Of a stretch of DNA of 64,000 nucleotides, positions 29,897 through 51,971 are shown piece after piece. How positions within the stretch are numbered: the stretch's first letter is position 1; each line of letters begins with the position of its first letter. The position numbers were made by a program, and so were the translations under genes. The notes below the pieces were generated by a model. It saw only the letters and a list, made by a program, of their open reading frames with translations, was not told the DNA's origin and did no database searches. The DNA lies in the NCBI RefSeq assembly GCF_900104685.1, contig NZ_LT629755.1, positions 3,410,001-3,474,000 on the forward strand, written 5' to 3'. Source of the DNA: Agromyces flavus (GTDB taxonomy: Bacteria > Actinomycetota > Actinomycetes > Actinomycetales > Microbacteriaceae).

Positions 29897-29912
29897 GTCC
29901 GGGATCGCGGAC
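29897..29912. promoter_or_regulatory. Hut operator copy 3, upstream of the arginase-family gene
   Basis: GTCCGGGATCGCGGAC matches the hutU/hutH palindrome at 14 of 16 positions. Its centre is 62.5 bp before the ATG, exactly as in the other two sites. Confidence 0.75.
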
Positions 29913-29954
29913 GGTGCGCGGGGGACGACCCGAGCGGCGCGGCATCCGCGTCGC

Positions 29955-29960
29955 TAGCCT
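29955..29960 (+). promoter_or_regulatory. Leaderless -10 element of hutG (TAGCCT)
   Basis: TAGCCT, six bases CGGAAG, then ATG. The same layout (hexamer, CGGA, two bases, ATG) is found at hutU and hutH. Confidence 0.7.
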
Positions 29961-29966
29961 CGGAAG

Positions 29967-30965
29967 ATGACCGGCCCCGTCCTCTCGCACGACCCGCTCT
30001 GGCCACGCGCGGGCGACTGGCCCGCGATCGAGGCGCTCGCCGACGGGGCCCGCGCCGACCTCACGATCCTCGGCGTGCCGGCGTCGCGCTCGTCGCTCTC
30101 GCCCACGAACGCGCACACCACGCCGGCAGCGATCCGGGAGGCGCTGCGGCGGTACAGCCCAGCGCTCGTGCCCGACCGGTCGCGCGACGTGTTCGGCCCG
30201 CCCGACGCGCGCCCGCCCGGCGTGGTCGACCTCGCGGAGCTCGGGTACGCCGACGCGGGCGACATCGACGAGCCCGACGGCGAGGCCGGTGAGGCGCGCA
30301 CGCGCGCCCGCGTCGCCGAGGTGCTCGACCGTTCCGACGCGATCATCGCGCTCGGCGGCGACAACTCGGTGACCGTCGCGACCGCGCTGGGCGCGTGGGG
30401 CGACGACCTCGCCCGCGCCGGACTGGTGACGATCGACGCCCACCACGACCTGCGGGAGGGGGTATCGAACGGCTCGCCGGTGCGTCGGCTCATCGAGGCC
30501 GGCCTCGATCCGCGCCGCATCGTGCAGATCGGCATCGCCGACTTCGCGAACTCGGCCGCGTATGCGCGCCGGGCCGAGGAACTGGGCATCACCGTGGTCC
30601 ACCGCGACGAGCTGCACCATCGGCAGCTCGGCGCGCTCATGGCCGAGGCGCTCCTGATCGCGGGCGCGGCAGGCGGCCCGGTCCACCTCGACGTGGACGT
30701 CGACGCGTGCGACCGCTCGGTCGCGCCCGCCTGCCCCGCGTCGGTCCCCGGGGGCCTGACGGCGTGGGAGCTTCGCGCGCTCGTCCGCGCCGCGGCATCC
30801 GACCCGCGCGTTCGAAGCGCCGACCTCGTCGAGATCGACGCGACCACCGATGCGCCCGACGGTCGCACGGTTCGCCTCGCGGCGCTCTGCGTGCTCGAGT
30901 TCGCGGCGGGAATCGCGATTCGGAAGGTGCCGCCGCCCGAGGAGGGTGGCAGACTCGGCGCATGA
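29967..30965 (+). CDS. hutG: Arginase-family hydrolase, probable formimidoylglutamase
   Basis: 332 residues, ureohydrolase fold with two-metal motifs: GGDNSVT (130-136), DAHHDLR (157-163) and DVDACD (244-249). Predicted to split N-formimino-L-glutamate to glutamate and formamide, the last step of histidine breakdown. Sequence alone only gives the arginase superfamily; the assignment rests on the hut operator and matching leaderless promoter upstream. Asn133 stands where arginases and agmatinases have a metal-binding His (GGDH). The stop overlaps the next start (ATGA). Agmatinase or guanidino-hydrolase are alternatives. Confidence 0.75.
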   Translation: MTGPVLSHDPLWPRAGDWPAIEALADGARADLTILGVPASRSSLSPTNAHTTPAAIREALRRYSPALVPDRSRDVFGPPDARPPGVVDLAELGYADAGDIDEPDGEAGEARTRARVAEVLDRSDAIIALGGDNSVTVATALGAWGDDLARAGLVTIDAHHDLREGVSNGSPVRRLIEAGLDPRRIVQIGIADFANSAAYARRAEELGITVVHRDELHHRQLGALMAEALLIAGAAGGPVHLDVDVDACDRSVAPACPASVPGGLTAWELRALVRAAASDPRVRSADLVEIDATTDAPDGRTVRLAALCVLEFAAGIAIRKVPPPEEGGRLGA

Positions 30966-31444
30966 AGACGCTCGTGCTCGTCCGCCACGCGAAGTCGGCG
31001 TGGGGCGACCCGACGCTCGCCGACCACGACCGCCCGCTCAACGATCGCGGCCGACGCGATGCGCCCGAGATGGGCCGGCGCCTCCGCGAGCGCGGCGTCG
31101 CACCCGACGCGATCCTGTCGAGCACCGCGGTGCGCGCTCGCAGCACGGCCGAGGCGATCGCCGACGAGCTCGGCGCGGCGCGCGGCGTGCTCGCGTTCGA
31201 CGAGCGGCTCTACGGCTCGTCGCCCGAGACGATCCTCGAGGTCGTCGGCGAGGTCGACGACGAGATGACGACCGTCCTCGTCGTCGCGCACGATCCGGGC
31301 ATGTCCGATCTCGCGAACCAGCTGTCGGGCGAGATCGAGCACATGCCCACGTGCGGCGTGGCCGAGTTCCGCTTCGCCGCGTGGTCGTGGTCCGAGATCG
31401 GCGAGGCCGAACCGCTCGAGGTGCACCTCGACACCCCGCACTGA
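30962..31444 (+). CDS. SixA-type histidine phosphatase
   Basis: 160 residues, histidine phosphatase superfamily. LVRHAKSAWGDP near residue 6 has the catalytic RHA(K) motif; ILSSTAVRARSTAE and VVAHDPGMSDLANQL carry the second Arg and His. In Escherichia coli SixA removes phosphate from the nitrogen phosphotransferase protein; in Actinobacteria the partner is not defined. Translationally coupled to the hutG candidate by an ATGA overlap. Confidence 0.87.
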   Translation: MKTLVLVRHAKSAWGDPTLADHDRPLNDRGRRDAPEMGRRLRERGVAPDAILSSTAVRARSTAEAIADELGAARGVLAFDERLYGSSPETILEVVGEVDDEMTTVLVVAHDPGMSDLANQLSGEIEHMPTCGVAEFRFAAWSWSEIGEAEPLEVHLDTPH

Positions 31445-31478
31445 CGGGGCGTCCCGACAGCGAGTCCGAGGGCGACGT

Positions 31479-32219
31479 TCAGTCGCCGGATGCGGCGAGC
31501 ATGCGCCGCACGTACGGCGTCGCCGGGTCGGCGGCGAGCTCATCCAACGTGCCGCGCTGCGTGACGCGGCCGTCCTCGAGTACGAGCACGGCGTCGGCGA
31601 GCGCCGCGGCGTCGGCGCGGCTGTGGGTCACGAAAACCGTCGCGCCGCCGAACTCGCGAACGTGCGCGGCGAGCTCGGCGCGCATGTCGTCGCGCACCTC
31701 GACGTCGAGCGCCGACATCGGCTCGTCGAGCAGCAGCACATCGGGCTCGGCGGCGAGCGCTCGCGCGAGCGCCACCCGTTGCGCCTGGCCGCCCGACAGC
31801 TCGCCCGGCAGCCGGTCGGCGAGGGCGGCCAGGCCGTAGCGCTCGAGCCACGGCTCGGCGACGGCGCGGGCGGCGACGCGCGAGACGCCGCGCATCCGTG
31901 CGGCGAAGCCCACGTTGTCGCGCACGGTGAGATGGGGGAACAGCACGTGGTCCTGGAACACGACGCCGACGCGACGACGTTCGGGCGGCAGCTCGTCGAC
32001 CGTCCGGTCGCCGATCCGCACCCCACCCGCGTCGAGCGGCACGAGTCCCGCGATCGCGGCGAGCAGGGTCGACTTGCCGGCTCCGTTCGGGCCGATGACG
32101 GCGAGCGGATGTCCCGGCGCGACGTCGAACGCGGCGGCGACCCGGTGCCCGCCGCGCGTGACCGTCACATCGGCCCGGAGGATCGGATGCGCCGACGTCG
32201 ACGCCTGGCCGGGCGTCAT
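31479..32219 (-). CDS. modC: Molybdate ABC transporter ATP-binding protein
   Basis: 246-residue ABC ATPase energising molybdate import: Walker A GPNGAGKST near 43, Q-loop VFQDHVLF, signature LSGGQAQRVALARA, Walker B LLLDEPMSALD, switch His in THSRADA. It is shorter than ModC proteins with a C-terminal TOBE domain; here the TOBE domain is on the separate regulator gene at the start of the operon. ATGA overlap with modB. Last gene of the operon. Confidence 0.93.
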   Translation of the reverse strand: MTPGQASTSAHPILRADVTVTRGGHRVAAAFDVAPGHPLAVIGPNGAGKSTLLAAIAGLVPLDAGGVRIGDRTVDELPPERRRVGVVFQDHVLFPHLTVRDNVGFAARMRGVSRVAARAVAEPWLERYGLAALADRLPGELSGGQAQRVALARALAAEPDVLLLDEPMSALDVEVRDDMRAELAAHVREFGGATVFVTHSRADAAALADAVLVLEDGRVTQRGTLDELAADPATPYVRRMLAASGD

Positions 32220-33022
32220 CCGCGCACCCCCGGAAGCCAGCGGTCGCGCAGCCCGAGCAGCACCCCGACGGACACCGCGAGGAGTAGCAGCGCGAGCGCC
32301 ACGGCCTCGTCGGGATCGGTCTGCATCGCGAGGTAGCTCGCGATCGGCAGGGTGCGGGTGACGCCCGGCAGCGAGCCCGCGAAGGTGATGGTCGCGCCGA
32401 ACTCGCCCATCGCGCGCGTGAAGCACAGCACGGCCCCGGCCGCGACACCGGGAGCGACGAGCGGGAGCGTCACGTGCCGGAACACCTGCCAGCGGGACGC
32501 GCCGAGCGTGGCGGCCGCGAGCTCGGTGCGGCGGTCCGTCGAGCGCAGGGCGCCCTCGACGGCGAAGACGAGGAACGGCAGCGAGACGAACAGCTGCGCC
32601 AGGACGACCGCGCCCGACGTGAACGGGATGGTCACGCCGAGCGCGTCGGCCAGCGGACCGCCGAGCAGTCCGCGTCGTCCGAGGAGCAGGAGGAGGGCGA
32701 TGCCGCCGATCACGGGTGGCAGCACGAGCGGCACCGTGACGGCGGCGCGCAGCAGGCGTCGCGGCAGCGTCGGCCACGTCGCCGCCCTCGCCAGCACGGC
32801 CGCGAGCGGCACGCCCAGTACGAGGCTGAGCGCCGTGGCGAGACCGGCCGTCACGACCGACAGCACGAGCGCCTCACGCACGGACTCGCGAGCGATGAGC
32901 TCGGGAAGCTGCGCCCAGGGCGCGCGCACGACCAGGGCGACGAGCGGGAGCACGAGCACCCCGAGGCCCACGACCCCCAGCGTCGCGACCGGCCACGCGA
33001 GCCGATCGGAAGAGCGGTTCAC
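32216..33022 (-). CDS. modB: Molybdate ABC transporter permease
   Basis: 268 residues, six membrane helices, and the EAA loop (ELAAATLGASRWQVFRHVTL, PLVAPGV) that contacts ModC; FTRAMGEFGATITFAG is highly typical of ModB. Start is the GTG overlapping the modA stop (GTGA), its own stop overlaps modC. Belongs to the operon regulator-modA-modB-modC. Confidence 0.95.
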   Translation of the reverse strand: MNRSSDRLAWPVATLGVVGLGVLVLPLVALVVRAPWAQLPELIARESVREALVLSVVTAGLATALSLVLGVPLAAVLARAATWPTLPRRLLRAAVTVPLVLPPVIGGIALLLLLGRRGLLGGPLADALGVTIPFTSGAVVLAQLFVSLPFLVFAVEGALRSTDRRTELAAATLGASRWQVFRHVTLPLVAPGVAAGAVLCFTRAMGEFGATITFAGSLPGVTRTLPIASYLAMQTDPDEAVALALLLLAVSVGVLLGLRDRWLPGVRG

Positions 33023-33822
33023 GGCGCGCCGAATCCCAGGCGCTCGAGCACCGCCCGGCCGTCCGCACCGGTGACGAGTGCGACGAACGCCTCGGCGGCG
33101 TCGAGTTGCGGCGCGGTCGCGAGCGCGGCGACGGGGTAGCGATTGACGACGGATGCCGCAGCCGGGACCTCGATGCCCTCGACCGCGTCGCCCGCCGCGA
33201 GCACGTCGGTGCGGTACACGAGCGCCGCGTCGACCTCGCCGAGCGACACCTTGGTCAGCACGGCCCTCACGTCGGACTCGAGCGTGTCGGGCGTCGCCAC
33301 GACGCCCTCGGCGTCGAGCAGCGTCGCCGATGCGCCGCCGCACGGGACGGACGGGTCGCACAGCGCGACCCTGAGATCGGCGCGGGCCAGGTCGTCGAGC
33401 CCCGACACCGCCGCCGGGTTCCCGGCGGGCACCACCAGCTCGAGCGTGTTGGTCGCGAACACGGTGGAGCCATCGACGAGGGCGGCGTCGACGAGCGCCT
33501 GCATGGGCGGCTCGGCCGCGGCGGCGAACACGTCGGCGGGCGCGCCCTCGACGACCTGCTGCGCGAGCGCCGCACTGCCGCCGAAGTTCAGCACGACCTC
33601 CACCGACGGGTTGCGCTCCTCGAAGCGGTCGGCGAGCGCCTCGAAGGCGTCCGTCAGGGATGCCGCGGCGAAGACGGTGAGCGTCGCGGGTGCGAGCCCG
33701 TCGGAATCCGGCGCCGCCGGCGTGGAGGGGCCACCGTCGCCGGCGGAGGGCGCGCAGCCGGCCAGCGCGAGTCCAGCGGCGGCGACGGCCGCTGCCACAG
33801 CGAGGCGCGACATCCGCCTCAC
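33019..33822 (-). CDS. modA: Molybdate-binding lipoprotein
   Basis: 267 residues, substrate-binding component of the molybdate importer. Signal with lipobox LALAGC near residue 23; mature domain TLTVFAAASLTDAFEALADR, GGSAALAQQVVEGAPADVFA and TNTLELVVPAGNP, all ModA signatures. The Ala-Ala-Ser in the first and Ser in the second are oxyanion contacts. GTG start at 33822 overlaps the upstream stop; ATG three codons later is possible. Confidence 0.95.
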   Translation of the reverse strand: MRRMSRLAVAAAVAAAGLALAGCAPSAGDGGPSTPAAPDSDGLAPATLTVFAAASLTDAFEALADRFEERNPSVEVVLNFGGSAALAQQVVEGAPADVFAAAAEPPMQALVDAALVDGSTVFATNTLELVVPAGNPAAVSGLDDLARADLRVALCDPSVPCGGASATLLDAEGVVATPDTLESDVRAVLTKVSLGEVDAALVYRTDVLAAGDAVEGIEVPAAASVVNRYPVAALATAPQLDAAEAFVALVTGADGRAVLERLGFGAP

Positions 33823-34235
33823 GGGTCGGCCCGTTGCGGCAGCTCGATCGACACGACGGTCGCCTTCGCGCTCGCGGCCGCGAGCATGCCGGGTTCGAGG
33901 CCGAGCTCGTCGGCGGCTTCGCGGCTCATGAGCGAGACGATGCGGAACGGGCCGGCACGCAGTTCGACCTGCGCCATCACCCCGTCGCGGCGGACCGCGG
34001 TGACGAGGCCGACGAAGCGGTTGCGCACCGACGCGCGGGCGAGGGGGAACGCGTCGGCGAGGGCGCCGCCCTCGGGCTGCTCGGCGAGGAGGCGTGCGAG
34101 TTCCGCGCCGTCGACGACCTGCATGCCGTTGGCTCCACGGCCGAGCTCGAGGCGGCCCTGGTCGGCCCAGCGGCGCACCGTGTCATCGCTCACGCCGAGC
34201 AGCGCGGCCGCCTCGCTGATACGGAACCGAGTCAT
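33819..34235 (-). CDS. HTH-TOBE molybdate-responsive regulator
   Basis: 138 residues: a MerR/excisionase-type helix-turn-helix at about 4-50 (FRISEAAALLGVSDDTVRRW) joined to a Mop/TOBE domain at about 70-136 (SVRNRFVGLVTAVRRDGVMA, QVEL, and SLMSREAADELGL). The TOBE domain binds molybdate or tungstate, so the protein is a ModE-like sensor, first in the mod operon and likely to autoregulate it. Its stop overlaps the modA start. Confidence 0.88.
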   Translation of the reverse strand: MTRFRISEAAALLGVSDDTVRRWADQGRLELGRGANGMQVVDGAELARLLAEQPEGGALADAFPLARASVRNRFVGLVTAVRRDGVMAQVELRAGPFRIVSLMSREAADELGLEPGMLAAASAKATVVSIELPQRADP

Positions 34236-34288
34236 GCCGCGTACCGCGACTGCGTCTCCATGACGTCATCGTAGCCGCGGATGCGGAT

Positions 34289-34972
34289 TCAGTGGGAAAC
34301 CGTCGAGGTGTCTCCATCGCGTCCGCGCAGCGCGCTCCATCGGTCGGCGGTCAGCACCATGACACGCTCATCGCCGTCGGCCGGGACCTCCTCGAAGCCG
34401 AGCCGTTCGGCGAGCACCTTCGAGGCCGAGTTGCCCCACGTCATGTGCGCCTCGCAGCGCACTGCGCCCAGCTGCTCGAAGGCGAGCTCGAGCATCGCCT
34501 CGGCCGCCTCGCGCGCGTACCCACGACCCTGCCAGTCGGGGCCGATCACCCAGCCGACGTCCACCCGGCGGTCGGCGCGTTCGAGCGAGCGCAGGTGCAG
34601 CGACGCGTCGCCGATCAGCCGGTCGTCGAGCAGCACGGCGAGTGCGAGGAAGTCGTCGAGCTGTTCCAGCCGCGTATGCCGCGTGCGATGGGCGAGGTGC
34701 ACGAACGATTCGGCGCGCGTGCGCAACGGCCACGACAGGTGCTCGACCACGCGAGGATCGGACTGGAGCGCGTACCACGCGTCGGCATCGGCCAGTCGGT
34801 GCGGCCGGAGCACGAGCCGCTCGGTGCGGATCACCGGCGAGCGGACGCCGTCGTGGATCCGCGGGCCGCGCATGAACCGCGGCCGCTGCGGAATCATCGA
34901 CCGCAGCAGGCTCGCGAAGGAGTGGCCGTCGTGATCGTCCAATTCGGGCGGTCCTTCGGTCGTGCGGCTCAT
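34289..34972 (-). CDS. GNAT-family N-acetyltransferase (RimJ/RimL-like)
   Basis: 227 residues. The RimJ/RimL-type domain spans about 45-200: VIRTERLVLRPHRLADADAW, then DVGWVIGPDWQGRGYAREAA with the Q/RxxGxG/A acetyl-CoA loop. An extra 40-residue N-terminus (DDHDGHSFASLLRSMIPQRP) is unlike the family. The acceptor may be a protein N-terminus or small amine. Divergent from moeB and likely not part of the molybdenum pathway. Confidence 0.82.
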   Translation of the reverse strand: MSRTTEGPPELDDHDGHSFASLLRSMIPQRPRFMRGPRIHDGVRSPVIRTERLVLRPHRLADADAWYALQSDPRVVEHLSWPLRTRAESFVHLAHRTRHTRLEQLDDFLALAVLLDDRLIGDASLHLRSLERADRRVDVGWVIGPDWQGRGYAREAAEAMLELAFEQLGAVRCEAHMTWGNSASKVLAERLGFEEVPADGDERVMVLTADRWSALRGRDGDTSTVSH

Positions 34973-35184
34973 GTCGACCCCTTGTGACGCTGGCGCAGTG
35001 CAGGTCGCTCGTCGGCGACCCCGTTCGGTCAGGCGCCCGGGTCCGGCTCCGCCTCGGCGATGCCGGCCCGGTGGGCCATGGAACAACGCTACGCCGGAAT
35101 GCTGAGAAAGGGTCAGGCATTGCGCAGGTATCATCGCGCACGATATGCGGCCGACGGCGGGCCGGGTGCTGCGAGAATCGAGGA

Positions 35185-36306
35185 ATGGCGGCCATCGACC
35201 CCGGCGCGCGCCGGTACGCGCGGCAGCGGGTGCTGCCCGGCTTCGGCACGGCGGGCCAGGAGCGCCTCGCGGCCGCGCACGTCGTCGTGCTGGGCGCCGG
35301 CGGGCTCGGGTCGGCCGTGATCCCTCCCCTCGCGGCATCGGGCATCGGCCGCATCACGATCGTCGACGACGACCGCGTCGAGGTGACCAACCTGCACCGC
35401 CAGACGCTGCACGCCGATGCCGACGTCGGCCGTCCGAAGGTCGATTCGGCGACGGATGCCGCGGCGCTCCTCGCTCCCGATGCCGCGCTGCTCGGACTCA
35501 TGGTCCGATTCGACGAGGGCAACGCCGACGAACTGCTCGCCGACGCCGACGTCGTGGTCGACGGCACCGACGACCTGCCCACCCTGTACGTCGCGGACGC
35601 GGCCGCGGCGCGCGCCGGCATCCCGCTGGTGTGGGGCTCTGCGGCACGATTCTTCGGCCAGGTCGGCGTCTCGTGGGAGGCGCGCGGCGTCTCGTACCGC
35701 GACCTGTTCCCCGAACCACCGGCCGACGCGGGCCTCAGCTGCGAGGTCGACGGCATCCTGCCCACGGTGTGCACGGTGACCGGGGGGCTCATGGCCGGCG
35801 AGGTGCTCAAGCTCCTCACGGGCATCGGCGAACCGCTCGTCGGCCGTGTCGCGGTGTACGACGCGCTCACAGGTCGGACGCGCGAGATCGCCTATGCCCG
35901 CGACCCCGCCCGTGCCGACGCCGGTGGTCACGGGGGAGTCGGCGCCGACGAATCCAGAACCCCGAGCCCCGAGCCGATTCACGCGCCGATCCCCGAGATC
36001 GAGGCTCCGGCGCTCGCCGTGGAACTCGCATCCGGCACGCGCCCCGTCCTCCTCGACGTTCGGGAGCCGTGGGAGGCCGACCTCGCCGCGATCCCCGGCT
36101 CGACGCTGATCCCCCTGCACGAGCTCGGGGGCCGCGCGGGCGAGCTCGACCCCGCGGCATCCGTCGTCGTGTACTGCCATCTCGGCGTGCGCTCGCGCCT
36201 GGCGGCCGAGCACCTCGCGTCGATCGGCTTCGCCCGCGTGCGCAACCTGGCGGGCGGCATCGACGCGTGGTCCCGCGACGTCGACGCGAGCGTGGAGCGC
36301 TACTGA
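35185..36306 (+). CDS. moeB: MoeB/MoeZ-like sulfur-carrier adenylyltransferase with rhodanese domain
   Basis: 373 residues. E1-like domain 1-250: VVVLGAGGLGSAVIPPLAAS for nucleotide, NLHRQTLH, DGTDDLPT and LSCEVDGILPTVCTVTGGLM; rhodanese domain about 275-370 with VYCHLGVRSRLA, whose Cys carries sulfur. It activates the C-terminal GlyGly of MoaD and then sulfurates it. Zinc CxxC pairs seen in Escherichia coli MoeB are absent, as in actinobacterial MoeZ. Start is ATG with GAGGA upstream. Stop overlaps moeA (TGATG). Confidence 0.92.
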   Translation: MAAIDPGARRYARQRVLPGFGTAGQERLAAAHVVVLGAGGLGSAVIPPLAASGIGRITIVDDDRVEVTNLHRQTLHADADVGRPKVDSATDAAALLAPDAALLGLMVRFDEGNADELLADADVVVDGTDDLPTLYVADAAAARAGIPLVWGSAARFFGQVGVSWEARGVSYRDLFPEPPADAGLSCEVDGILPTVCTVTGGLMAGEVLKLLTGIGEPLVGRVAVYDALTGRTREIAYARDPARADAGGHGGVGADESRTPSPEPIHAPIPEIEAPALAVELASGTRPVLLDVREPWEADLAAIPGSTLIPLHELGGRAGELDPAASVVVYCHLGVRSRLAAEHLASIGFARVRNLAGGIDAWSRDVDASVERY

Positions 36307-37517
36307 TGGGCGAGCGCGTCGCCGTCGACGAGCACGCGCGGTTCGTGCGGTCGCTGCTCGCGTCGCTCGGGGCACGGCCCACCGAGCGGGTGCCGCTCGA
36401 CGACGCGCTCGGGCGCATCACGGCGTCGCCGGTCGAGTCGCCCATTCCCCTGCCGCCGTTCCGCAACGCGCAGATGGACGGGTTCGCGGTGCGCGCCGCC
36501 GACGTGGCGGGCGCGTCGGCCGAGTCATCCGTCGCCCTGCCCGTCGTCGGCGAGCTCGCCGCCGCGCCGGGCACGCCCGAGCCGCTCATCGCGGGGACCG
36601 CGGTGCGGATCATGACGGGCGCGCCGGTGCCCGACGGCGCCGACGCGGTCGTCCCCGTCGAGGACACGGAGTCCGCACGGGATGGCGCGACGGTCCGGAT
36701 CCGCCGATCGCGCGCTGCCGGCGAGTACGTTCGCGAGGCCGGATCCGATCTGGCTGCCGGGGCCGACGTGCTCCCGGCGGGGATCCGGCTGGAGCCGCGG
36801 CACCTCGCGGCCGCCGCGGCATCCGGTCTCGCCGAGCTCCTCGTGCGCGAGCGTGTGCGGGTCGCGGTCGTCAGCACGGGCAGCGAACTCGTGGCGCCGG
36901 GTGAGCGGCTCGCCCCGGGCGAGATCCCCGACGCGAACGGCGTCGCGCTCGTCGCAGCGGTCCGAGCCGCCGGTGCGGTCGTGCGGCACACGGCGCGCGT
37001 GCGCGACGACGTCGAACGGCTCCGCGTCGAGCTCGATGCGGCCGTCGACGCCGGCGCCGAGCTCATCCTGACGAGCGGCGGCATCTCGCAGGGCGCCTAC
37101 GAGGTCGTCCGCGAGCTCATCGAACCGCTCGGCGCGTGGGTCGGCTCGGTCGCGATGCAGCCCGGCGGGCCGCAGGCGACCGGCGTGTACCGCGGCGTTC
37201 CGCTCATCGGCTTCCCGGGCAACCCCGTGAGCACCCAGCTGTCATTCGCGCTGTTCGTCGCCCCCTCGCTGCGGGCCATCGCGGGGCTTCCGCCCCCCCG
37301 GTCCGAGCGGCTGCCGCTCGCCGAGGCGATCACCTCCATCCCCGGACGCCGGCAGATCCTGCGCGGCCGGCGCACCCCCGACGGCACCGCCGCGCCCGTC
37401 GGCGGACCGGGATCCCACCTCGTCGCCGCGCTCGCGGCATCCGACCTGCTCATCGTCGTGCCCGAGTACGTCACGTCGCTCGACGCCGGCGATCTCGTCG
37501 ATACCGTGGACCTATGA
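36306..37517 (+). CDS. moeA: Molybdopterin molybdenumtransferase (first MoeA)
   Basis: 403 residues. Inserts molybdate into adenylylated molybdopterin. Signatures: PPFRNAQMDGFAVRAADVAG near residue 50, TGAPVPDGADAVVPVEDTE, VSTGSELVAPGE and TSGGISQGAYEVV, then GFPGNPVSTQLSF. Coupled to moeB upstream (TGATG) and to moaC-mog downstream (ATGA). A second, diverged moeA lies at 41369. Confidence 0.95.
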   Translation: MGERVAVDEHARFVRSLLASLGARPTERVPLDDALGRITASPVESPIPLPPFRNAQMDGFAVRAADVAGASAESSVALPVVGELAAAPGTPEPLIAGTAVRIMTGAPVPDGADAVVPVEDTESARDGATVRIRRSRAAGEYVREAGSDLAAGADVLPAGIRLEPRHLAAAAASGLAELLVRERVRVAVVSTGSELVAPGERLAPGEIPDANGVALVAAVRAAGAVVRHTARVRDDVERLRVELDAAVDAGAELILTSGGISQGAYEVVRELIEPLGAWVGSVAMQPGGPQATGVYRGVPLIGFPGNPVSTQLSFALFVAPSLRAIAGLPPPRSERLPLAEAITSIPGRRQILRGRRTPDGTAAPVGGPGSHLVAALAASDLLIVVPEYVTSLDAGDLVDTVDL

Positions 37518-38659
37518 GCTCGCTCACGCACCTCGACGACGACGGCCGCGCTCGCATGGTCGACGTCGGCGGCAAGCCCGTCACCCACCGCGTCGCGATC
37601 GCCGAGGGTCGACTCGACACGACGCCCGAGGTCGTCGAGCTCGTGCGCAGCGACCGGCTGAAGAAGGCCGACGTGCTGCCCACCGCCCGCATCGCCGGCA
37701 TCGCGGGCGCCAAGCGGACCAGCGAGCTCATCCCGCTCGCGCACATCGTGCCGCTCGATGCGGTGTCGATCGACTTCGGCTTCGAGGACGCGGCGGTCAC
37801 GATCCGCGCGACGGCGTCGACCACCGCGAAGACCGGCATCGAGATGGAGGCGCTCACGGCCGTCGCGATCGCCGGACTCACCCTGCACGACATGGTCAAG
37901 GCCGTCGACCCGGCGGCTCGGCTCGGGGGGATCCGCCTCGTCGAGAAGCGCGGCGGCAAGCGCGGCGTGTGGCGGGCCGATGACGCGGCGCCGGGTGCGG
38001 CCGAGAACGAGTCCGACGAAGCGCCGACCGATGCCGCGCCGTCGCGCCGCGCCATCGTGCTCGTCGCCTCCACTCGCGCCGCCGCGGGCACCGCGGCCGA
38101 CGAGACCGGTCCCGTGATCGCCCGCTGGCTCGCCGGGCACGGCCTCGACGTCGACGCGCCCCGCGTGGTCGCCGACGCCGAGATCGCCGAGGCGCTGCGC
38201 ACCGCGGTCGCCGAGCGGCCCGCCGTGATCCTCACCACGGGTGGCACGGGCGTGAACCCCCACGACCGCACGCCCGAGGCCACGCGCGCCGTGCTCGACC
38301 AGGAGCTTCCCGGGGTCGCCGAGGCGATCCGCGCCGACGGTCGCGCCGCGACGCCGACCGCGGCGGTGAGCCGCGCGCTCGCCGGGCTCGCGGGTCGCAC
38401 GATCATCGTCAACCTGCCGGGTTCGCGCGGCGGCGTCGCCGACGGGCTCGCGGTGCTCGACGGGCTGCTCCCGCACCTGCTCGACCAGGTCGCGGGCGGC
38501 GACCACGCCCCGCGCGGCGGGAGGCACCCGCGAGCGGATGCCGCGGTCGAGCCCGGGCATGAGGCGCACGGCGCGTCCAGGCCGGGACCGGCCGCCGAGC
38601 GCGAGACGGGGCACGGCGAGGCGGACCGGCTCGAGCACGGGGGTGCCCCGCATGCCTGA
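37514..38659 (+). CDS. moaC-mog: MoaC-Mog fusion (cyclic pyranopterin monophosphate synthase + molybdopterin adenylyltransferase)
   Basis: 381 residues combining two steps. Residues 1-158 are MoaC (ARMVDVGGKPVTHRVAIAEG, GIAGAKRTSELIPLAHI, KTGIEMEALTAVA), making cPMP with MoaA. Residues about 175-335 are the MoaB/Mog domain (VLVASTRAAAGTAADETGPV, ILTTGGTGVNPHDRTPEAT, NLPGSRGG), adenylylating molybdopterin. A His/Gly-rich tail of about 45 residues has no assignment. This fusion is known in Actinobacteria. It overlaps moeA by four bases and moaE by eight. Confidence 0.93.
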   Translation: MSSLTHLDDDGRARMVDVGGKPVTHRVAIAEGRLDTTPEVVELVRSDRLKKADVLPTARIAGIAGAKRTSELIPLAHIVPLDAVSIDFGFEDAAVTIRATASTTAKTGIEMEALTAVAIAGLTLHDMVKAVDPAARLGGIRLVEKRGGKRGVWRADDAAPGAAENESDEAPTDAAPSRRAIVLVASTRAAAGTAADETGPVIARWLAGHGLDVDAPRVVADAEIAEALRTAVAERPAVILTTGGTGVNPHDRTPEATRAVLDQELPGVAEAIRADGRAATPTAAVSRALAGLAGRTIIVNLPGSRGGVADGLAVLDGLLPHLLDQVAGGDHAPRGGRHPRADAAVEPGHEAHGASRPGPAAERETGHGEADRLEHGGAPHA

Positions 38660-39071
38660 GCCCGAGGTCCTCGCCGTCGTCACGAACGAGGTGCTCGACC
38701 GCGCGGCCATCGAAGCGTTCGTCCGGTCGCCACAGGATGGCGCGCTCGTCACGTTCGAGGGCGTGATCCGCGACCACGATCACGGCGAGGCCGTCACGGC
38801 GCTCGACTACGAGGCCCACCCCGACGCCGAGCGGTTCCTGCGCGAGACCTGTGCCGAGGTCGCCCGCGAGACCGGGCTGCGGGTGGCGGCCGCGCACCGC
38901 GTCGGCGCGCTGACCATCGGGGATGTCGCGCTCGTGGCATCCGTCGCCGCCCCGCACCGGGCCGAGGCGTTCGCGGCGTGCGCGCTGCTCGTCGATCGCA
39001 TCAAGGAGCGCACGCCGATCTGGAAGCGGCAGCACCTCGCCGGCGGCACCACGGAGTGGGTCAACCTCTGA
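38652..39071 (+). CDS. moaE: Molybdopterin synthase large subunit
   Basis: 139 residues. With MoaD it makes the dithiolene of molybdopterin. Motifs: ALVTFEGVIRDHDHG, LDYEAHPDAERF, AAHRVGALTIGDVALVASVA, and the catalytic KERTPIWKRQ near the end. Start ATG lies within the last eight bases of moaC-mog. Last gene of the + strand operon; convergent with moaD. Confidence 0.95.
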   Translation: MPEPEVLAVVTNEVLDRAAIEAFVRSPQDGALVTFEGVIRDHDHGEAVTALDYEAHPDAERFLRETCAEVARETGLRVAAAHRVGALTIGDVALVASVAAPHRAEAFAACALLVDRIKERTPIWKRQHLAGGTTEWVNL

Positions 39072-39096
39072 TCCCGGGTCGACCGCCCGCTCCCGG

Positions 39097-40435: not shown

Positions 40436-40441
40436 GTCCCC

Positions 40442-40447: not shown

Positions 40448-40484
40448 AGCGCCCGCGCCGTGCTCGCGACCCCCGTCGCACGTG

Positions 40485-43306: not shown

Positions 43307-44112
43307 GCGCCGACGGGACGGCACCTCCGGTCGCCACGACGGGCGTCCCGCCGAGTTCGGCCCTCCGTGCCGTGCCGCGCGCCGGATGGCACGTCGCCAC
43401 GGTCGCGGCCACGCGCCGCGAGACGCCGAACGCGGCCCGCATCGAGCTCGACGTCGACGGATGGCCCGGCAACGCGGCCGGACAGCACCTCGACGTCCGG
43501 CTGACCGCGCCCGACGGCTACACCGCGACGCGGTCGTACTCGATCGCGTCGTCGGGCCCCTCGACGCGCGTCGTGCTCGCCGTCGACAAGCTGCCCGACG
43601 GCGAGGTGTCGCCGTTCCTCGTCGACGCGCTGCAGGCGGGCGACCAACTCGAGGTGCACGGGCCGCTCGGCGCGTTCTTCGTGTGGCGCCCCGCCGCGGA
43701 GTCGGGAGAGGACCGACCCGTGCAGCTCATCGCGGGCGGCTCCGGGGTCGTGCCGCTCTACGCGATGGCGCAGGCGCACGCCGACCGCGGTGATCCGACG
43801 CCGTTCCGCCTGCTCTACTCGGTCCGCACGCCCGACGACGTCTACTTCGCCGACGAATGGCGCGCGCTCGCCGAGGCATCCGCGCCGCTCGAACTGGACT
43901 ACGTGTACACGCGGCGCGCGCCCGACGGCTGGTCGACGCCGCCCGCGCGCATCACGCGCGAGGCGCTCGAGTCGGCGGTCGTGCCGGCCTCCGAGCGGCC
44001 GCGCGTGTTCGTCTGCGGCTCGACCGGTTTCGTGGAGCGCGTCGCCGACTGGCTCGTCGAGCTCGGGCACGAGCCGCGATCCATCCGCACCGAACGCTAC
44101 GGAGGCACGTGA
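43303..44112 (+). CDS. Ferredoxin-reductase-type FAD/NAD(P) oxidoreductase
   Basis: 269 residues: FAD domain about 25-135 (RSYSIASS binds flavin) and NAD(P) domain about 140-265 (IAGGSGVVPLYAMAQAHADR, VFVCGSTGFVERVADWLV). No iron-sulfur domain, so electrons pass from NAD(P)H via FAD direct to a partner, likely the molybdoenzyme with which it is translationally coupled. Next gene overlaps its stop (TGATG). Confidence 0.87.
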   Translation: MSADGTAPPVATTGVPPSSALRAVPRAGWHVATVAATRRETPNAARIELDVDGWPGNAAGQHLDVRLTAPDGYTATRSYSIASSGPSTRVVLAVDKLPDGEVSPFLVDALQAGDQLEVHGPLGAFFVWRPAAESGEDRPVQLIAGGSGVVPLYAMAQAHADRGDPTPFRLLYSVRTPDDVYFADEWRALAEASAPLELDYVYTRRAPDGWSTPPARITREALESAVVPASERPRVFVCGSTGFVERVADWLVELGHEPRSIRTERYGGT

Positions 44113-44369
44113 TGACCGGCCACCTCGACGGCAACGCGCTCGCCGGACCGCTCGCCGACTTCTTCTCGTTCGACGTCACGACCGCGACCGGGCGCTGCCG
44201 GGCCTGCGGCACGATCGCTGAGCTCGCGCGCGCAATGGTCTACGTCAGCGGCGCCGGCACGGTGGTGCGCTGCTCGACGTGCGACAACGTCCTCGCGGTG
44301 CTCGTCGACACCGGCGACCGCGCCTGGATCGACTTCGCGGGGGTCACCGCGATCGAGGTTCGCCGCTAG
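44112..44369 (+). CDS. DUF6510 zinc-ribbon protein
   Basis: 85 residues with two CxxC knuckles, RCRACGT and VRCSTCDNV, forming a zinc ribbon. DUF6510 members are found next to molybdoenzyme/flavin-reductase pairs in Actinobacteria. Role unknown; could be a maturation or electron-transfer scaffold. Third gene of the coupled operon (TGATG). Confidence 0.8.
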   Translation: MTGHLDGNALAGPLADFFSFDVTTATGRCRACGTIAELARAMVYVSGAGTVVRCSTCDNVLAVLVDTGDRAWIDFAGVTAIEVRR

Positions 44370-44484
44370 GGAGTCCGCTGCTCCTCGGGCGGCGGGAACC
44401 GCCACCTTCGTCGTTGCGGCCCGGTTCCGCAAGGCTACCCAACGGCCCGAGGGCTGGGTGGCGACCGGGGACGGTTTCCGGATC

Positions 44485-44512
44485 CCTCATGTGAGCGCGG
44501 CCTCACATGAGG
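44485..44512. terminator. 11-bp hairpin after the molybdoenzyme operon
   Basis: CCTCATGTGAG (44485-44495) pairs with CTCACATGAGG (44502-44512) over six bases. It lies in the 266-base gap before the reductase-like gene; terminator or operator are both possible. TAGTCT at 44579-44584 may be a -10 element for the next gene. Confidence 0.45.
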
Positions 44513-44635
44513 CGGGACGGACACGAGCCGAGCGGAAGCGATCGCCGGTCGAGGCCCCCATGGGACGCGGCCCGACCGTAGTCTGAGCAGGGTCTGCTGA
44601 AGTCGCGCAGCGCACACAACGGGGAGAGCGACGAG

Positions 44636-45208
44636 ATGAAACCACTTCGATACTCGATCAACGTCACGCTCGACGGCTGCGTCCATCACGAGGCAGGGCT
44701 CGCCCCTGATGAGGAGTCGATGCGCTACTGGACCGCTGAGATGGAACGAGCCGATGCCGTGCTGTTCGGCCGCACGACCTACGAGATGATGGAGTCGGCA
44801 TGGCGGCTGCCGGCCACGGGCACGTGGCCGGACTGGATGCGGGAGTGGGAGATCCCGTTCGCCGAGGCCATCGACCGGACGAAGAAGTACGTCGTGTCGA
44901 GCACGCTGAGCGCGGTCGATTGGAATGCCGAGCTGGTGGGAGACGATCTGGCGGCAACGGTCCGGCGGCTCAAGGAGGAGCCCGGCGAGGGCCTGTCCGT
45001 GGGTGGCGTGACGCTCCCTCGGGCGTTGGCGGATCTGGGACTGATCGACGAGTACGTGTTCGTGGTGCAGCCGCTCGTTGCGGGGCACGGCCCGACGTTG
45101 CTCGCCGGACTCCGCGAACGTCTCCAGCTCGAGCTCGTGGATCGCCACGAGTTCCGATCGGGAGTGGTGGCCCTGCACTACCGCCCCACGAGCAGCAGCT
45201 CGACGTAA
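44636..45208 (+). CDS. Dihydrofolate-reductase-family (RibD C-terminal-like) protein
   Basis: 190 residues with the RibD_C/DHFR fold: LRYSINVTLDGCVHHEAG at the N-terminus, ADAVLFGRTTYEMMESAW, KKYVVSSTLS, LSVGGVTLPRALADLGLIDE. Probably NADPH-binding reductase of unknown substrate; many such proteins exist per actinobacterial genome. ATG with GGGGAGAG upstream. Monocistronic. Confidence 0.82.
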   Translation: MKPLRYSINVTLDGCVHHEAGLAPDEESMRYWTAEMERADAVLFGRTTYEMMESAWRLPATGTWPDWMREWEIPFAEAIDRTKKYVVSSTLSAVDWNAELVGDDLAATVRRLKEEPGEGLSVGGVTLPRALADLGLIDEYVFVVQPLVAGHGPTLLAGLRERLQLELVDRHEFRSGVVALHYRPTSSSST

Positions 45209-45310
45209 CGACGTTCTCGCGCCACTCCGAGGGTCAGCCGGCATCGCGCAAACGGACACCGACCTGGCGTCTCGCGCGCCTTCCATCGCGCGACGTGGGA
45301 GGCTGACGCC

Positions 45311-45607
45311 GTGTGGATCGGGTGGATCGAGTTCGACCTGCTGCTCGGCGACGTGCACTCGCTGAAAGAGAAGCGCGGGGTGCTGCGACCACTGATCGCA
45401 GAGCTCCGGCGGGCCACCGAGGCATCCGTCGCCGAGGTCGGTGACCAGGACCTGCACCGCCGCGCTCGTCTCGGCGTGGCCGTGACGGCGGCCGGTGCCG
45501 ATCGCGTGACCGACGTGCTCGACCGGGCCGAGCGGCTCGTCGCGGCGCACCCCGAGTTCACGCTGCTGTCGGCGCGCCGGCGGCTCCATCGCAGCGACGA
45601 CGACTGA
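45311..45607 (+). CDS. DUF503 (YlxP-like) protein
   Basis: 98 residues: WIGWIEFDLLLGDVHSLKEK, RGVLRPLIAELRR and a GxAVTAAGADRVTDVLDRAE second half, typical of DUF503/YlxP. In many bacteria the gene lies in the nusA-infB-rbfA group and is linked to ribosome maturation; here it is alone, so its role is unclear. GTG start. Confidence 0.85.
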   Translation: MWIGWIEFDLLLGDVHSLKEKRGVLRPLIAELRRATEASVAEVGDQDLHRRARLGVAVTAAGADRVTDVLDRAERLVAAHPEFTLLSARRRLHRSDDD

Positions 45608-45632
45608 CGCGCGCGAGCGGGCACCGCCGGGC

Positions 45633-46871
45633 TCAGGCGACGCGCGCGCCGTCCTTCCACGTCTCCGCGATGAGCGGTACGCCAGGACGATAGGCGAGGT
45701 GCACGTGACTGGGCGCGTCGAGCAGCACGAGGTCGGCGCGCGAACCGGGCCGCAGTGTGCCGACATCCGTTCGCCGCAGCGCCGCGGCGCCGCCGGCCGT
45801 GGACGCCCACAGCGCTTCGGCCGGCGTCATTCCCATGTCGCGGACCGCGACCGCGATGCAGAAGGGCAGCGAACTCGTGAAGCTCGAGCCCGGATTGCAG
45901 TCGCTCGCGAGCGCAACGGTCACGCCGGCATCGATGAGCCGGCGCGCGTCGGGATACGGCTGCCGTGTCGAGAACTCGACACCGGGCAGGAGGGTCGCGA
46001 CGGTGCGCGAGCCCGCGAGGGCCGCGACGTCCTCGTCGGCCAGATAGGTGCAGTGGTCGACGGATGCCGCGTCGAGCTCGACCGCGAGGCGGACGCCGTC
46101 GCCCTCGCCGAGCTGGTTGCCGTGCACGCGCACGCCGAGGCCGGCGGCGGCGCCCGCCTCGAGCACGCGCCGGGACTGTGCGGCGAAGAACGCGCCGCGC
46201 TCGCAGAAGGCGTCGACCCAGCGCGCGTGCGGCGCGCACGCCGCGAGCATCTCGCCGACGACCACGTCGACGTACGCATCCGCGCCTGGACCGTCGGGCT
46301 CGCGGAACTCGAACGGCACGACGTGCGCACCCAGGAACGTGACCTCGTCGGTGACCTCGCGCGCGAGGCGGACGAGCCGCTCCTCGTCGCGCACCGACAG
46401 CCCGTACCCCGACTTGACCTCGAACGTCGTCGTGCCCTGCCGGTGCAGCTCGGCGACGAAGCCCGCGAGGCGTGCTCGCAGCTCGTCGTCGGATGCGGCC
46501 CGGGTCGCCGCGACGGTCGAGCGTATGCCGCCCGCCTCGTAGGCGCGACCCGCCATCCGCGCAGCGAACTCGTCGGCCCGGTCGCCGCCGAAGACGAGAT
46601 GCGTGTGCGAGTCCACGAACCCGGGGATGACCGCGCGGCCACCCGCGTCGAGCACCTCCACGTGGTGCGGATGCGGGGCGTCGCCCGCCAGCTCGACGTC
46701 GGGCGCCTCGGCGGAGGGGCCGATCCAGGTGATGACCCCGTCCTCGGCGAGCAGGGCCGCGTCGCGCACGATGCCCAGCGCGCCGCCCTCGCGACCCGGC
46801 TGCGGGTCGTTCGTGACGAGCTCGCCGATCCCCGTGACGAGCAGCCGCGACGACGCGGCGGGATGCGCCAT
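45633..46871 (-). CDS. hutI: Imidazolonepropionase
   Basis: 412 residues, third step of histidine breakdown: imidazolone propionate to N-formimino-L-glutamate. Amidohydrolase metal motif [10 protein letters not shown] near residue 88, EVKSGYGLS with substrate-contacting residues, and [16 protein letters not shown] with the last metal Asp. Starts three bases after hutU, in one operon under the hut operator at 48651. Confidence 0.96.
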
Positions 46872-46874
46872 CCG

Positions 46875-48596
<1,722 letters not shown>

Positions 48597-48602
48597 GTTC
48601 CG

Positions 48603-48608
48603 ATCCCA
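48603..48608 (-). promoter_or_regulatory. Leaderless -10 element of hutU-hutI (TGGGAT)
   Basis: TGGGAT on the minus strand, CGGAAC, then ATG; aligned with hutH (TGGAAT-CGGAGC-ATG) and hutG (TAGCCT-CGGAAG-ATG). Confidence 0.65.
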
Positions 48609-48650
48609 CACCGTCGACGTGCCGCGCTCAACGGATGTCGCGGGGGTGGC

Positions 48651-48666
48651 GTCCGGGATACCGGAC
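48651..48666. promoter_or_regulatory. Hut operator copy 1 (hutU-hutI)
   Basis: Palindrome GTCCGGGATACCGGAC, identical to the hutH copy and sharing flanking TGGC and G. Centre 62.5 bp from the hutU start. Probable IclR-family regulator site. Confidence 0.85.
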
Positions 48667-48679
48667 GAGGTGGGCCGGT

Positions 48680-50206
<1,527 letters not shown>

Positions 50207-50329
50207 AGGGCTTCCATCGCGTCCGGCTGCAGCGCCGGCACCACCCAAGTCTTACCGATCATCGGGGGAAGCCACAACCCGACCGTGCGAACACGGGATC
50301 CCCCATTCGGGGCGCAGCGCGATCCCGGG

Positions 50330-51901
50330 TCAGACGAGGGCGACGACGGATGCCGCGCGCCGGACGATCTCGCCGGTGGTCACCGCATCGACCAGCGCCT
50401 CGATCTCGGGCGACAGGAACCGGTCCTCACCGGGCACGGAGCCCGTCGCGGCGACCAGTCGCGCGACGGCGCCGGTGGCCGGTCCGGGCTCGAGCGGCGC
50501 CCGGAGGGCGAGGCCGCGCGAGGCCGTCATGACCTCGATCGCGAGCACGCGTGCGAGGCCGTCGACGGCGCGGCGCAGCTTGCGCGCGGCCGCCCAGCCC
50601 ATCGACACGTGGTCCTCCTGCATGGCCGACGAGGGGATGGAGTCGACCGACGCGGGAACCGCCAGGCGCTTGAGCTCCGACACGATGCCGGCCGCGGTGT
50701 ACTGCGCGATCATGAGTCCGGAGTCGACGCCGACCTCGTGCGCGAGGAACGGCGGGAGGCCCTGGTTGCGGGCCCGGTCGAGGAAGCGGTCGGTGCGCCG
50801 CTCGCTCATGGACGCGACATCCGCCACCGCGATGGCGAGGAAGTCGAGCACGTACGCGACCGGTGCGCCGTGGAAGTTGCCGTTCGACTCGACCCGGCCG
50901 TCGAGCGTGAGCACCGGATTGTCGACCGCGCTGGCGAGCTCGGCGTCGGCGACGGATGCCGCGTGCGCGAGGGTGTCGCGGGCGGCGCCGTGCACCTGCG
51001 GGGCGCAGCGCAGCGAGTAGGCGTCCTGGACGCGCGTGCACTCCGGGCCCTTGTGGCTCGCGACGATCGGCGAACCGGCGAGGAGATTCCGCAGGTTCGC
51101 CGCGGACGCCGCCTGGCCGCGCTGCGGGCGCAGCGCGTGGAGGTCCTCGGCGAACACCGCGTCGGTGCCCATCAGCCCCTCGACGCTCATCGCCGCGGCG
51201 ATGTCGGCCGTGGTGAGCAGGCGCCGCAGATCGTCGATCGCGAGTGCGAGCATGCCGAGCATGCCGTCGGTGCCGTTGATGAGGGCGAGGCCCTCCTTCT
51301 CGCCGAGGCGCAATGGCGTGATGCCGGCCGCGGCGAGAGCGGTCGCGGCATCCGTCGACTCACCGGACGCGTCCCGCACGTCGCCCTCGCCCATCGCCAC
51401 GAGTGCGCAGTGCGCGAGCGGGGCCAGGTCGCCCGAGCAGCCGAGCGAGCCGAACTCGCGCACGACGGGCGTGATCCCGGCATTGAGGATCGCGGCGTAC
51501 GTCTCGGCGGTCTCGCGGCGCACGCCCGTGCGGCCCGTCATGAGCGTCGAGAGCCGCAGCAGCATGAGTGCGCGCACGACCTCGCGCTCGACCTCGGCGC
51601 CCGATCCGGCGGCGTGCGAGCGGACGAGGCTCGCCTGCAGCTGCGCACGGCGGTCCTCGGCGATGAAGGTGGTCGCGAGCGCGCCGAACCCGGTCGAGAT
51701 GCCGTAGTGCGGCTGCGGGTCGGCCGCGAGGCCGTCGATGATCGCGCGGCTGCGCGCGACCTCGTCGAGCGCGGCCGGGTCGAGCACGACCGCGGCGTCG
51801 TACCGGGCGATCGCGACGACGTCATCGATGCCGAGCGGGCCGATGCCGACGGTGACGGATGCCGCGGCGGTCCGGGTGGGCGAGGGCGCGATGGTGCTCA
51901 T
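50330..51901 (-). CDS. hutH: Histidine ammonia-lyase
   Basis: 523 residues, first step of histidine breakdown: L-histidine to urocanate and ammonia. The MIO cofactor triad is Cys155-Ser156-Gly157 in GSLGCSGDLAPLAH, in place of the common Ala-Ser-Gly; YGISTGFG, NGTDGMLGML, VQDAYSLRCAPQVHGAARD and NGNFHGAP are conserved active-site segments. ATG at 51901 has TGGAAT six bases upstream; the hut palindrome is at -62.5. Divergent from the IclR regulator. Confidence 0.97.
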   Translation of the reverse strand: MSTIAPSPTRTAAASVTVGIGPLGIDDVVAIARYDAAVVLDPAALDEVARSRAIIDGLAADPQPHYGISTGFGALATTFIAEDRRAQLQASLVRSHAAGSGAEVEREVVRALMLLRLSTLMTGRTGVRRETAETYAAILNAGITPVVREFGSLGCSGDLAPLAHCALVAMGEGDVRDASGESTDAATALAAAGITPLRLGEKEGLALINGTDGMLGMLALAIDDLRRLLTTADIAAAMSVEGLMGTDAVFAEDLHALRPQRGQAASAANLRNLLAGSPIVASHKGPECTRVQDAYSLRCAPQVHGAARDTLAHAASVADAELASAVDNPVLTLDGRVESNGNFHGAPVAYVLDFLAIAVADVASMSERRTDRFLDRARNQGLPPFLAHEVGVDSGLMIAQYTAAGIVSELKRLAVPASVDSIPSSAMQEDHVSMGWAAARKLRRAVDGLARVLAIEVMTASRGLALRAPLEPGPATGAVARLVAATGSVPGEDRFLSPEIEALVDAVTTGEIVRRAASVVALV

Positions 51902-51907
51902 GCTCCG

Positions 51908-51913
51908 ATTCCA
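51908..51913 (-). promoter_or_regulatory. Leaderless -10 element of hutH (TGGAAT)
   Basis: TGGAAT on the minus strand, CGGAGC, then the hutH ATG. Confidence 0.65.
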
Positions 51914-51955
51914 CACCGAGCACGCGCGCGCGGGAACGTGCGCGACTACGCTGGC

Positions 51956-51971
51956 GTCCGGGATACCGGAC
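51956..51971. promoter_or_regulatory. Hut operator copy 2 (hutH/iclR)
   Basis: GTCCGGGATACCGGAC, identical to copy 1; centre 62.5 bp from the hutH start and about 42 bp from the regulator start, so it may both activate hutH and limit the regulator gene. Confidence 0.85.

What the first reader, a model, noticed from the sequence alone, without database searches (positions are those of the whole stretch)
29897..51971. A three-site histidine-utilisation regulon joined by one palindrome at constant distance
GTCCGGGATACCGGAC occurs at 48651-48666 (hutU-hutI) and 51956-51971 (hutH/IclR gene), identical with shared flanks, and as a 14/16 match at 29897-29912 before an arginase-family gene 18 kb away. 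In all three the palindrome centre is 62.5 bp before the start codon. Such constancy is very unlikely by chance and links the remote gene to hut as formimidoylglutamase, giving a full path from histidine to glutamate. The IclR protein encoded beside hutH is the obvious binder.
Basis: partly seen in the sequence, partly recalled or inferred. Interest (0 to 1): 0.82.

Follow-up and report, generated by a model that had tools for sequence, protein, structure and literature searches.

The report
Histidine-breakdown regulon with fixed operator spacing
Three separate histidine-breakdown transcription units in this bacterium share one control sequence, always the same distance from the promoter; it resembles the control sequence of the known HutR system, and the constant distance is best explained by an activator docking at one fixed spot beside RNA polymerase.

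Summary
The palindrome lies before hutH, hutUI and an arginase-family gene 18 kb away, each time centred 62.5 bp before the ATG. It is not chance: GTCYGNNATNNCRGAC occurs four times in the 3.69-Mb genome, three of them here, and 0 times read backwards. Of 36 near-matches only these three carry both the ATG spacing and a -10-like hexamer. The core resembles the published operator of HutR, the IclR-type hut regulator of Corynebacterium resistens, so this is a new member of a known kind. What I add: the spacing recurs across family and class; it is locked to the -10 hexamer rather than the start codon, the ATG following because these mRNAs look leaderless. In relatives with 5' leaders the ATG moves and the hexamer stays. 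hutU has its own site when separated from hutH (25 of 27) and not when it follows hutH directly (0 of 28). The remote gene is best read as formimidoylglutamase (HutG), although it misses the curated cut-off. Most likely HutR activates hutH, hutUI and hutG from a class I position and represses its own gene. Binding, activation, ligand and start sites are inferred, not shown.

The parts
29897..29912 (+). HutR operator before hutG, centre 62.5 bp from ATG
   Evidence: a matching site at 62.5-64.5 bp from the ATG in 46 of 53 genus loci, this one included
29955..29960 (+). -10-like hexamer TAGCCT of hutG, 6 nt before ATG (leaderless type)
   Evidence: hexamer offset tallies
29967..30965 (+). hutG, formimidoylglutamase (arginase family)
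   Evidence: hutG-like gene in the hut locus of 20 of 80 named relatives
30962..31444 (+). SixA-like phosphohistidine phosphatase gene, ATG overlapping the hutG stop; probable passenger in the hutG operon
   Evidence: position; the name SixA is recalled from sequence resemblance, no family search was made
45633..46871 (-). hutI, imidazolonepropionase
   Evidence: TIGR01224, 364 bits against cut-off 298
46875..48596 (-). hutU, urocanate hydratase; hutI starts 3 nt behind it
   Evidence: TIGR01228, 891 bits against cut-off 375
48603..48608 (-). -10-like hexamer TGGGAT of hutU
48626..48631 (-). -35-like hexamer TTGAGC of hutU, 17-nt spacer
   Evidence: TTGTC is the commonest sequence at this offset in hutU of relatives
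48651..48666 (-). HutR operator before hutU-hutI
48680..50248 (-). M23-type peptidase gene lying between hutH and hutU (start codon uncertain)
50330..51901 (-). hutH, histidine ammonia-lyase
   Evidence: TIGR01225, 630 bits against cut-off 539
51908..51913 (-). -10-like hexamer TGGAAT of hutH
51947..51952 (+). -10-like hexamer TACGCT of hutR, starting 9 bp before the operator
   Evidence: a TAnnnT starting 4-16 bp before the operator in 30 of 63 relatives
51956..51971 (.). HutR operator shared by divergent hutH and hutR; centre 62.5 bp from hutH ATG, 42.5 bp from hutR ATG
52006..52788 (+). hutR, IclR-family regulator (HTH_IclR + IclR_C)

Best explanation
The three palindromes are operators of HutR, the IclR-family regulator encoded beside hutH, and join hutH, hutUI and a detached hutG into one regulon taking histidine to glutamate and formamide. 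A HutR dimer (or dimer pair) bound at the operator sits about 62.5 bp upstream of the transcription start, the operator ending 19 bp before the -35 position, and recruits RNA polymerase as a class I activator when histidine or a breakdown product (urocanate is the likeliest) is bound. The transcription start coincides with the ATG (leaderless mRNA), so the operator-to-ATG distance is constant. The same operator overlaps the predicted start point of hutR on the other strand, so bound HutR represses its own gene. Shown by comparison: one operator type restricted to hut genes, its lock to the -10, and its presence at hutU when hutU is outside the hutH operon. Inferred: physical binding by HutR, activation, the ligand, autorepression and the start sites.
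For: A related HutR operator, GTCTGWWATWCCAGAC, is published (PMC8222616, passages). Genus, 53 hutG loci: 44 exact, 46 with at most 1 mismatch, all 46 with ATG at 62.5-64.5. Family, 68 hutH loci: 57 with at most 1 mismatch, 54 of them with a start at 61.5-64.5; 62 of 68 by a wider rule. 200 scrambled palindromes: mean 0.045 and 0.055 loci, maximum 2 and 3, against 47 and 44 for the real one, exact matches. Class: site + 54/55 nt + ATG in 43 of 394 genomes, site + 60/61 nt + ATG in 1 of 394; 25 of 30 fetched loci begin hutH or hutU at that ATG. A T....T hexamer stands at offset 42 or 43 in 118 of 136 promoters (62% at 42, 26% at 43, next highest offset 20%). Nine promoters with the ATG 87-130 bp away keep it at 42 or 43. 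hutU has its own site in 0 of 28 adjacent, 25 of 27 separated and 6 of 6 not downstream of hutH. All 67 hutH-bearing genomes of 120 are among the 70 with a HutR-like protein. TAnnnT on the hutR strand beside the site in 30 of 63.
Against: No expression, footprint or transcription-start data. The window's three sites differ from the published consensus string at 4, 4 and 6 of 16 positions; 29 of 57 family hutH sites are within 2. 7 of 53 genus hutG loci and 9 of 18 hutG loci of the named set have no site with at most 1 mismatch. 16 of 73 named-set hutH loci have none, among them Nocardioides, Arthrobacter and some Microbacteriaceae. L083 and L085 have separated hutU without a site. Of the 25 separated hutU with a site, 21 are Agromyces, so they are not independent. 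L215 has a site without the -10 lock; five family loci (L193, L195, L223, L224, L226) and three hutG loci (L133, L164, L166) have the start spacing but no T....T at 42 or 43. The recognition-helix/operator co-change (R/K with GTCTC, 5 of 5 against 3 of 42) is one event on the tree and hardly counts. The -10 hexamers are weak, and hutG in the window has no good -35.
Confidence: 0.8

Rival explanations
1. HutR binds the same sites but is a repressor of the hut genes, relieved by histidine or urocanate, as HutC is in Pseudomonas.
For: The IclR family includes repressors as well as activators (PMC8222616, passage); HutC is a repressor of hut genes (abstract start of PMC12977541).
Against: The operator ends 19 bp upstream of the -35 position and 42 bp upstream of the -10, where a simple repressor would not block polymerase, and this place is kept across the class. 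The -10 hexamers of hutH (TGGAAT, TTTCAT) are poor, as activator-dependent promoters tend to be (recalled).
Confidence: 0.15
2. The sites are bound by another IclR-family protein, and HutR beside hutH is not the main regulator.
For: Many IclR-family proteins share GTNCG-N5-6-CGNAC-type operators (PMC8222616, passage), so the motif alone does not name the binder; the window's sites are 4-6 positions from the published HutR string.
Against: Only one HutR-like protein at E <= 1e-30 in this genome; all 67 hutH genomes of 120 have a HutR-like protein; a related operator is attributed to HutR in C. resistens.
Confidence: 0.04
3. The palindromes are RNA hairpins or terminators of the upstream genes rather than operators.
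For: GTCCGG/CCGGAC can pair, and two copies lie 12-13 bp behind the stop of the gene upstream.
Against: No terminator-like site at the hutU copy (the other two copies were not scanned); the hutH copy lies between divergent genes; the site keeps its distance to the next gene's -10 and is absent when hutU follows hutH.
Confidence: 0.01
4. The 29967 gene is an agmatinase or other ureohydrolase, not HutG.
For: The hutG model TIGR01227 scores 143 bits, under its cut-off of 229, and a probable agmatinase elsewhere in the genome scores 155 against the same model. A second solved formiminoglutamase (4mxr) ranks below several arginases and agmatinases.
Against: Best solved relative is formimidoylglutamase 3m1r (E 2e-30, next 5e-18) with shared GGDNS and DAHHD..NG.P.RRL stretches; operator in 46 of 53 genus loci; hutG-like gene in the hut locus of 20 of 80 relatives; no formimidoylglutamate deiminase above cut-off in the genome.
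Confidence: 0.07

Closest known systems
HutR regulon of Corynebacterium resistens DSM 45100 (Schroder et al. 2012, FEMS Microbiol Lett 331:136; not held, seen only as cited in PMC8222616; hut genes in PMC3350403, passages)
   Same: IclR-family regulator in the hut cluster; hutH, hutU, hutI and hutG path to glutamate and formamide; operator GTCTGWWATWCCAGAC, with the same GTCNG-N2-AT-N2-CNGAC frame.
   Different: Here the regulon is in three separate units with hutG 18 kb away; the window's operators are the GTCCG..CGGAC variant, 4-6 positions from the published string; the lock of operator to -10 in leaderless-type promoters is described here. I could not read whether promoters were mapped in C. 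resistens.
HutC regulation of hut in Pseudomonas (abstract start of PMC12977541; rest recalled)
   Same: Local regulator of the same pathway.
   Different: HutC is a repressor of the GntR family (family recalled); this one is IclR-family and most likely an activator.
Class I activators such as CRP at -61.5 (recalled)
   Same: Site centre about 62 bp before the transcription start, upstream of -35, with tight spacing.
   Different: Different protein family; contact with RNA polymerase is not shown here.

Membership tests
HutR regulon (IclR type) | Regulator with HTH_IclR and IclR_C domains | tested here: met
   PF09339 51.5 bits, PF01614 76.4 bits, both above cut-off
HutR regulon (IclR type) | Encoded beside hut genes | tested here: met
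   divergent from hutH in the window and in 57 of 80 named relatives
HutR regulon (IclR type) | Operator of the published HutR type before hut genes | tested here: met
   met in the relaxed form GTCYGNNATNNCRGAC; the window's copies differ from the printed consensus at 4, 4 and 6 positions, 29 of 57 family sites at no more than 2
HutR regulon (IclR type) | Orthology of the regulator with C. resistens HutR | not tested
   the C. resistens protein was not fetched
HutR regulon (IclR type) | Physical binding and effect on hut transcription | not testable with these tools
   needs gel shift, deletion and RNA measurements
HutG formimidoylglutamase | Score above the curated TIGR01227 cut-off | tested here: not met
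   143.3 bits against 229.15; the name is therefore a functional reading from operator, gene neighbourhood and motifs, not membership of that model
HutG formimidoylglutamase | Closer to a solved formimidoylglutamase than to arginases or agmatinases, with shared active-site stretches | tested here: met
   3m1r E 2.1e-30, next best 5.1e-18; but formiminoglutamase 4mxr only 6.4e-10
Class I activator promoter | Activator site centred near -62, upstream of -35, with fixed spacing to the promoter | tested here: met
   by sequence only
Class I activator promoter | Activation through contact with the alpha subunit C-terminal domain | not testable with these tools
   needs in vitro transcription
Leaderless mRNA | -10 hexamer about 12 bp before the start codon | tested here: met
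   criterion as in passages of PMC3160421

The most novel reading that the evidence does not exclude
An IclR-family activator uses one invariant class I geometry on mostly leaderless promoters across the actinobacterial class, and when a hut gene stands outside the operon it has its own operator at exactly that distance from the -10. Regulon membership and function (here, hutG) could then be read from site plus spacing alone, and the system would give a natural series for measuring how strictly promoter geometry is selected.
Probability: 0.6. Interest if true: 0.55.

Novelty: new member of a known kind. Interest (0 to 1): 0.42.

Why it matters
It gives a remote arginase-family gene a function where the curated hutG model falls short, supplies a strict sequence rule (operator + 42/43 nt + -10) for finding HutR targets in actinobacteria, and offers a case where operator spacing has been kept although operon structure changed, which can be tested directly at the bench.

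Tried and rejected
Terminator or hairpin reading: rejected. Recognition-helix/operator co-change as proof that HutR is the binder: striking in a table (Fisher p 4e-5) but a single event on the tree, so given little weight. Q against H at the same residue with GTCCG: not significant (p 0.18). A control of hut genes in HutR-less relatives was sought, but every hutH genome in the sample had a HutR-like protein. Further regulon members in this genome, such as a histidine permease, were looked for with one mismatch allowed: none had both ATG spacing and hexamer. My first pass over minus-strand hutG loci read them in the wrong orientation and is superseded. One search missed L247 through a window limit and L226 because only ATG starts were counted; both have a start at 61.5-64.5.
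Full report
OBSERVATION. Centre to ATG is 62.5 bp in all three. The window lies at 3410001-3474000 of a 3.69-Mb single-contig genome; its nearest named relatives by the regulator are Agromyces. In that genome the form GTCYGNNATNNCRGAC has 4 exact sites, 0 for the reversed pattern. The fourth (contig 382681) sits over what I read as the start codon of another gene. With one mismatch allowed there are 36 sites, reversed control 3; I read flanks for 35 as loci and one in the window. Only the three hut sites have both an ATG at 61.5-64.5 bp and a T....T hexamer at offset 42 or 43 (bases between site end and hexamer); three others have the ATG alone and four the hexamer alone. In 60 genus genomes the strict form GTCYGGNATNCCRGAC occurs 0-3 times per genome, at least once in 53 of 60, and the reversed control is 0 in each.

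GENES. hutH, hutU and hutI pass their curated cut-offs; the regulator carries HTH_IclR and IclR_C. The remote gene is arginase family; TIGR01227 (hutG) is its best model but at 143 bits, under the cut-off of 229. Its best solved relative is formimidoylglutamase 3m1r (E 2e-30, next 5e-18), sharing GGDNS and DAHHD...NG.P.RRL; another solved formiminoglutamase, 4mxr, ranks below several arginases and agmatinases. Two other arginase-family genes exist in the genome: one passes the agmatinase cut-off and scores 155 bits against the hutG model, more than our gene; the other reaches no cut-off over the stretch scanned. The hutG model alone therefore does not decide. Formimidoylglutamate deiminase is not found above cut-off. 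A hutG-like gene lies in the same stored locus (at most about 20 kb) as hutR in 20 of 80 named relatives.

CONSERVATION. Genus: 55 of 60 genomes have the hutG gene. I examined 53 loci, this genome's included (30, 23; two fragments left out). 44 have an exact site and 46 one with at most 1 mismatch; all 46 have an ATG at 62.5 (14), 63.5 (27) or 64.5 (5); 7 have none. Family: 67 of 120 genomes have hutH. I took all 68 hutH loci outside this genome. 47 are exact, 57 have at most 1 mismatch, and 54 of the 57 have an in-frame start at 61.5-64.5. A wider rule, adding a GTCTC..GAGAC form and accepting either ATG spacing or hexamer, gives 62 of 68. In three of the misses (L243, L245, L246) hutH appears to follow hutI directly (my reading). 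200 scrambled palindromes give 0.045 and 0.055 loci on average, at most 2 and 3, against 47 and 44 for the real motif. In the named set, which is best-first and heavy in Agromyces, 57 of 73 hutH, 33 of 63 hutU, 9 of 18 hutG and 0 of 43 hutI loci have a site with at most 1 mismatch. Class: site + 54/55 nt + ATG occurs in 43 of 394 genomes (23 of 137 genera), and with 60/61 nt in 1 of 394; the reversed controls show 4 and 1 matches. I translated the 30 loci returned of 45 places: 23 begin hutH and 2 hutU at that ATG, 5 do not.

WHAT THE SPACING MEANS. Aligned on the site, 57 hutH promoters show T at offset 42 (91%), A at 45 (74%), A at 46 (77%), T at 47 (93%); hutG promoters show TAGCGT-like hexamers, mostly at 42 or 43; 33 hutU promoters show TTGTC at offsets 19-23 and AT at 46-47. 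T....T stands at 42 or 43 in 118 of 136 promoters; by offset it is 62% at 42, 26% at 43, and the next highest is 20%. The hexamer ends 6-7 nt before the ATG, the mark of leaderless genes, which PMC3160421 reports as common in Actinobacteria (passages). The critical cases are promoters whose ATG lies 87-130 bp away: six in the named set and three in the family set (L213, L221, L238) keep the hexamer at 42 or 43; L215 does not. Against this, five family loci and three hutG loci have the start spacing but no T....T at 42 or 43. On balance the site is locked to the -10, not to the start codon. A site centred about 62.5 bp before the start point and ending 19 bp before -35 is the place of a class I activator (recalled, as for CRP at -61.5).

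OPERON BREAK-UP. Among 61 named loci in which both genes could be scored, hutU has no own site in 28 of 28 cases where it follows hutH within 250 bp; it has one with ATG spacing or hexamer in 25 of 27 cases with a larger gap and in 6 of 6 cases not downstream of hutH. The rows are not independent: 21 of the 25 are Agromyces, the others one Glaciibacter and three Nocardioides (titles). In the window an M23-type peptidase gene separates the two, and hutU has its site. Whether the site was gained on break-up or kept from an older arrangement was not tested.

WHO BINDS. The published HutR motif is GTCTGWWATWCCAGAC. The window's copies differ from it at 4, 4 and 6 positions, while 29 of 57 family hutH sites are within 2, bridging the two. 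Every one of the 67 hutH genomes (E <= 1e-100) has a HutR-like protein (E <= 1e-30); three HutR-like genomes lack hutH (lists compared by eye). A clade with R or K at residue 46 of the recognition helix has GTCTC..GAGAC sites (5 of 5, against 3 of 42 others), but that residue change happened once on the tree while the site changed four times, so it is weak. On the hutR strand a TAnnnT hexamer starts 4-16 bp before the site in 30 of 63 loci, mostly at -13, -6 or -4, and at -9 in the window, so a bound protein would cover the predicted hutR start: autorepression is likely.

KNOWN OR NEW. HutR, its hut cluster and its operator are in print (PMC8222616 and PMC3350403, passages; Schroder et al. 2012 seen only as a citation). 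In searches I saw no listed paper describing the fixed spacing to the -10, the leaderless link or the hutU rule; I opened passages of six papers in all. Subscription papers and supplements were not readable, so this is not a claim of priority. I file the finding as a new member of a known kind with a sharper mechanism.

Noticed in passing
window 30962-31444 (+): A gene that looks like SixA phosphohistidine phosphatase (recalled resemblance) overlaps the hutG stop codon (ATGA) and probably rides in the hutG operon.
   Followed up: partly
L191, L192, L207, L208, L214: One clade of HutR proteins with R/K in the recognition helix has operators of the form GTCTC..GAGAC at the same 62.5 bp spacing.
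   Followed up: yes
L243, L245, L246: In these family members (1.4-1.7-Mb genomes) hutH appears to follow hutI directly and has no operator of its own.
   Followed up: no
L013 and L305 (own genome, 1212479 and 3050167): Two one-mismatch sites with the same 16-bp sequence have an ATG at 62.5 bp but no -10 hexamer; possibly a repeated element.
   Followed up: no
L251, L274, L275: Class-wide pattern hits with good operator and hexamer but a very short reading frame at the ATG; the true hut start may lie nearby.
   Followed up: no
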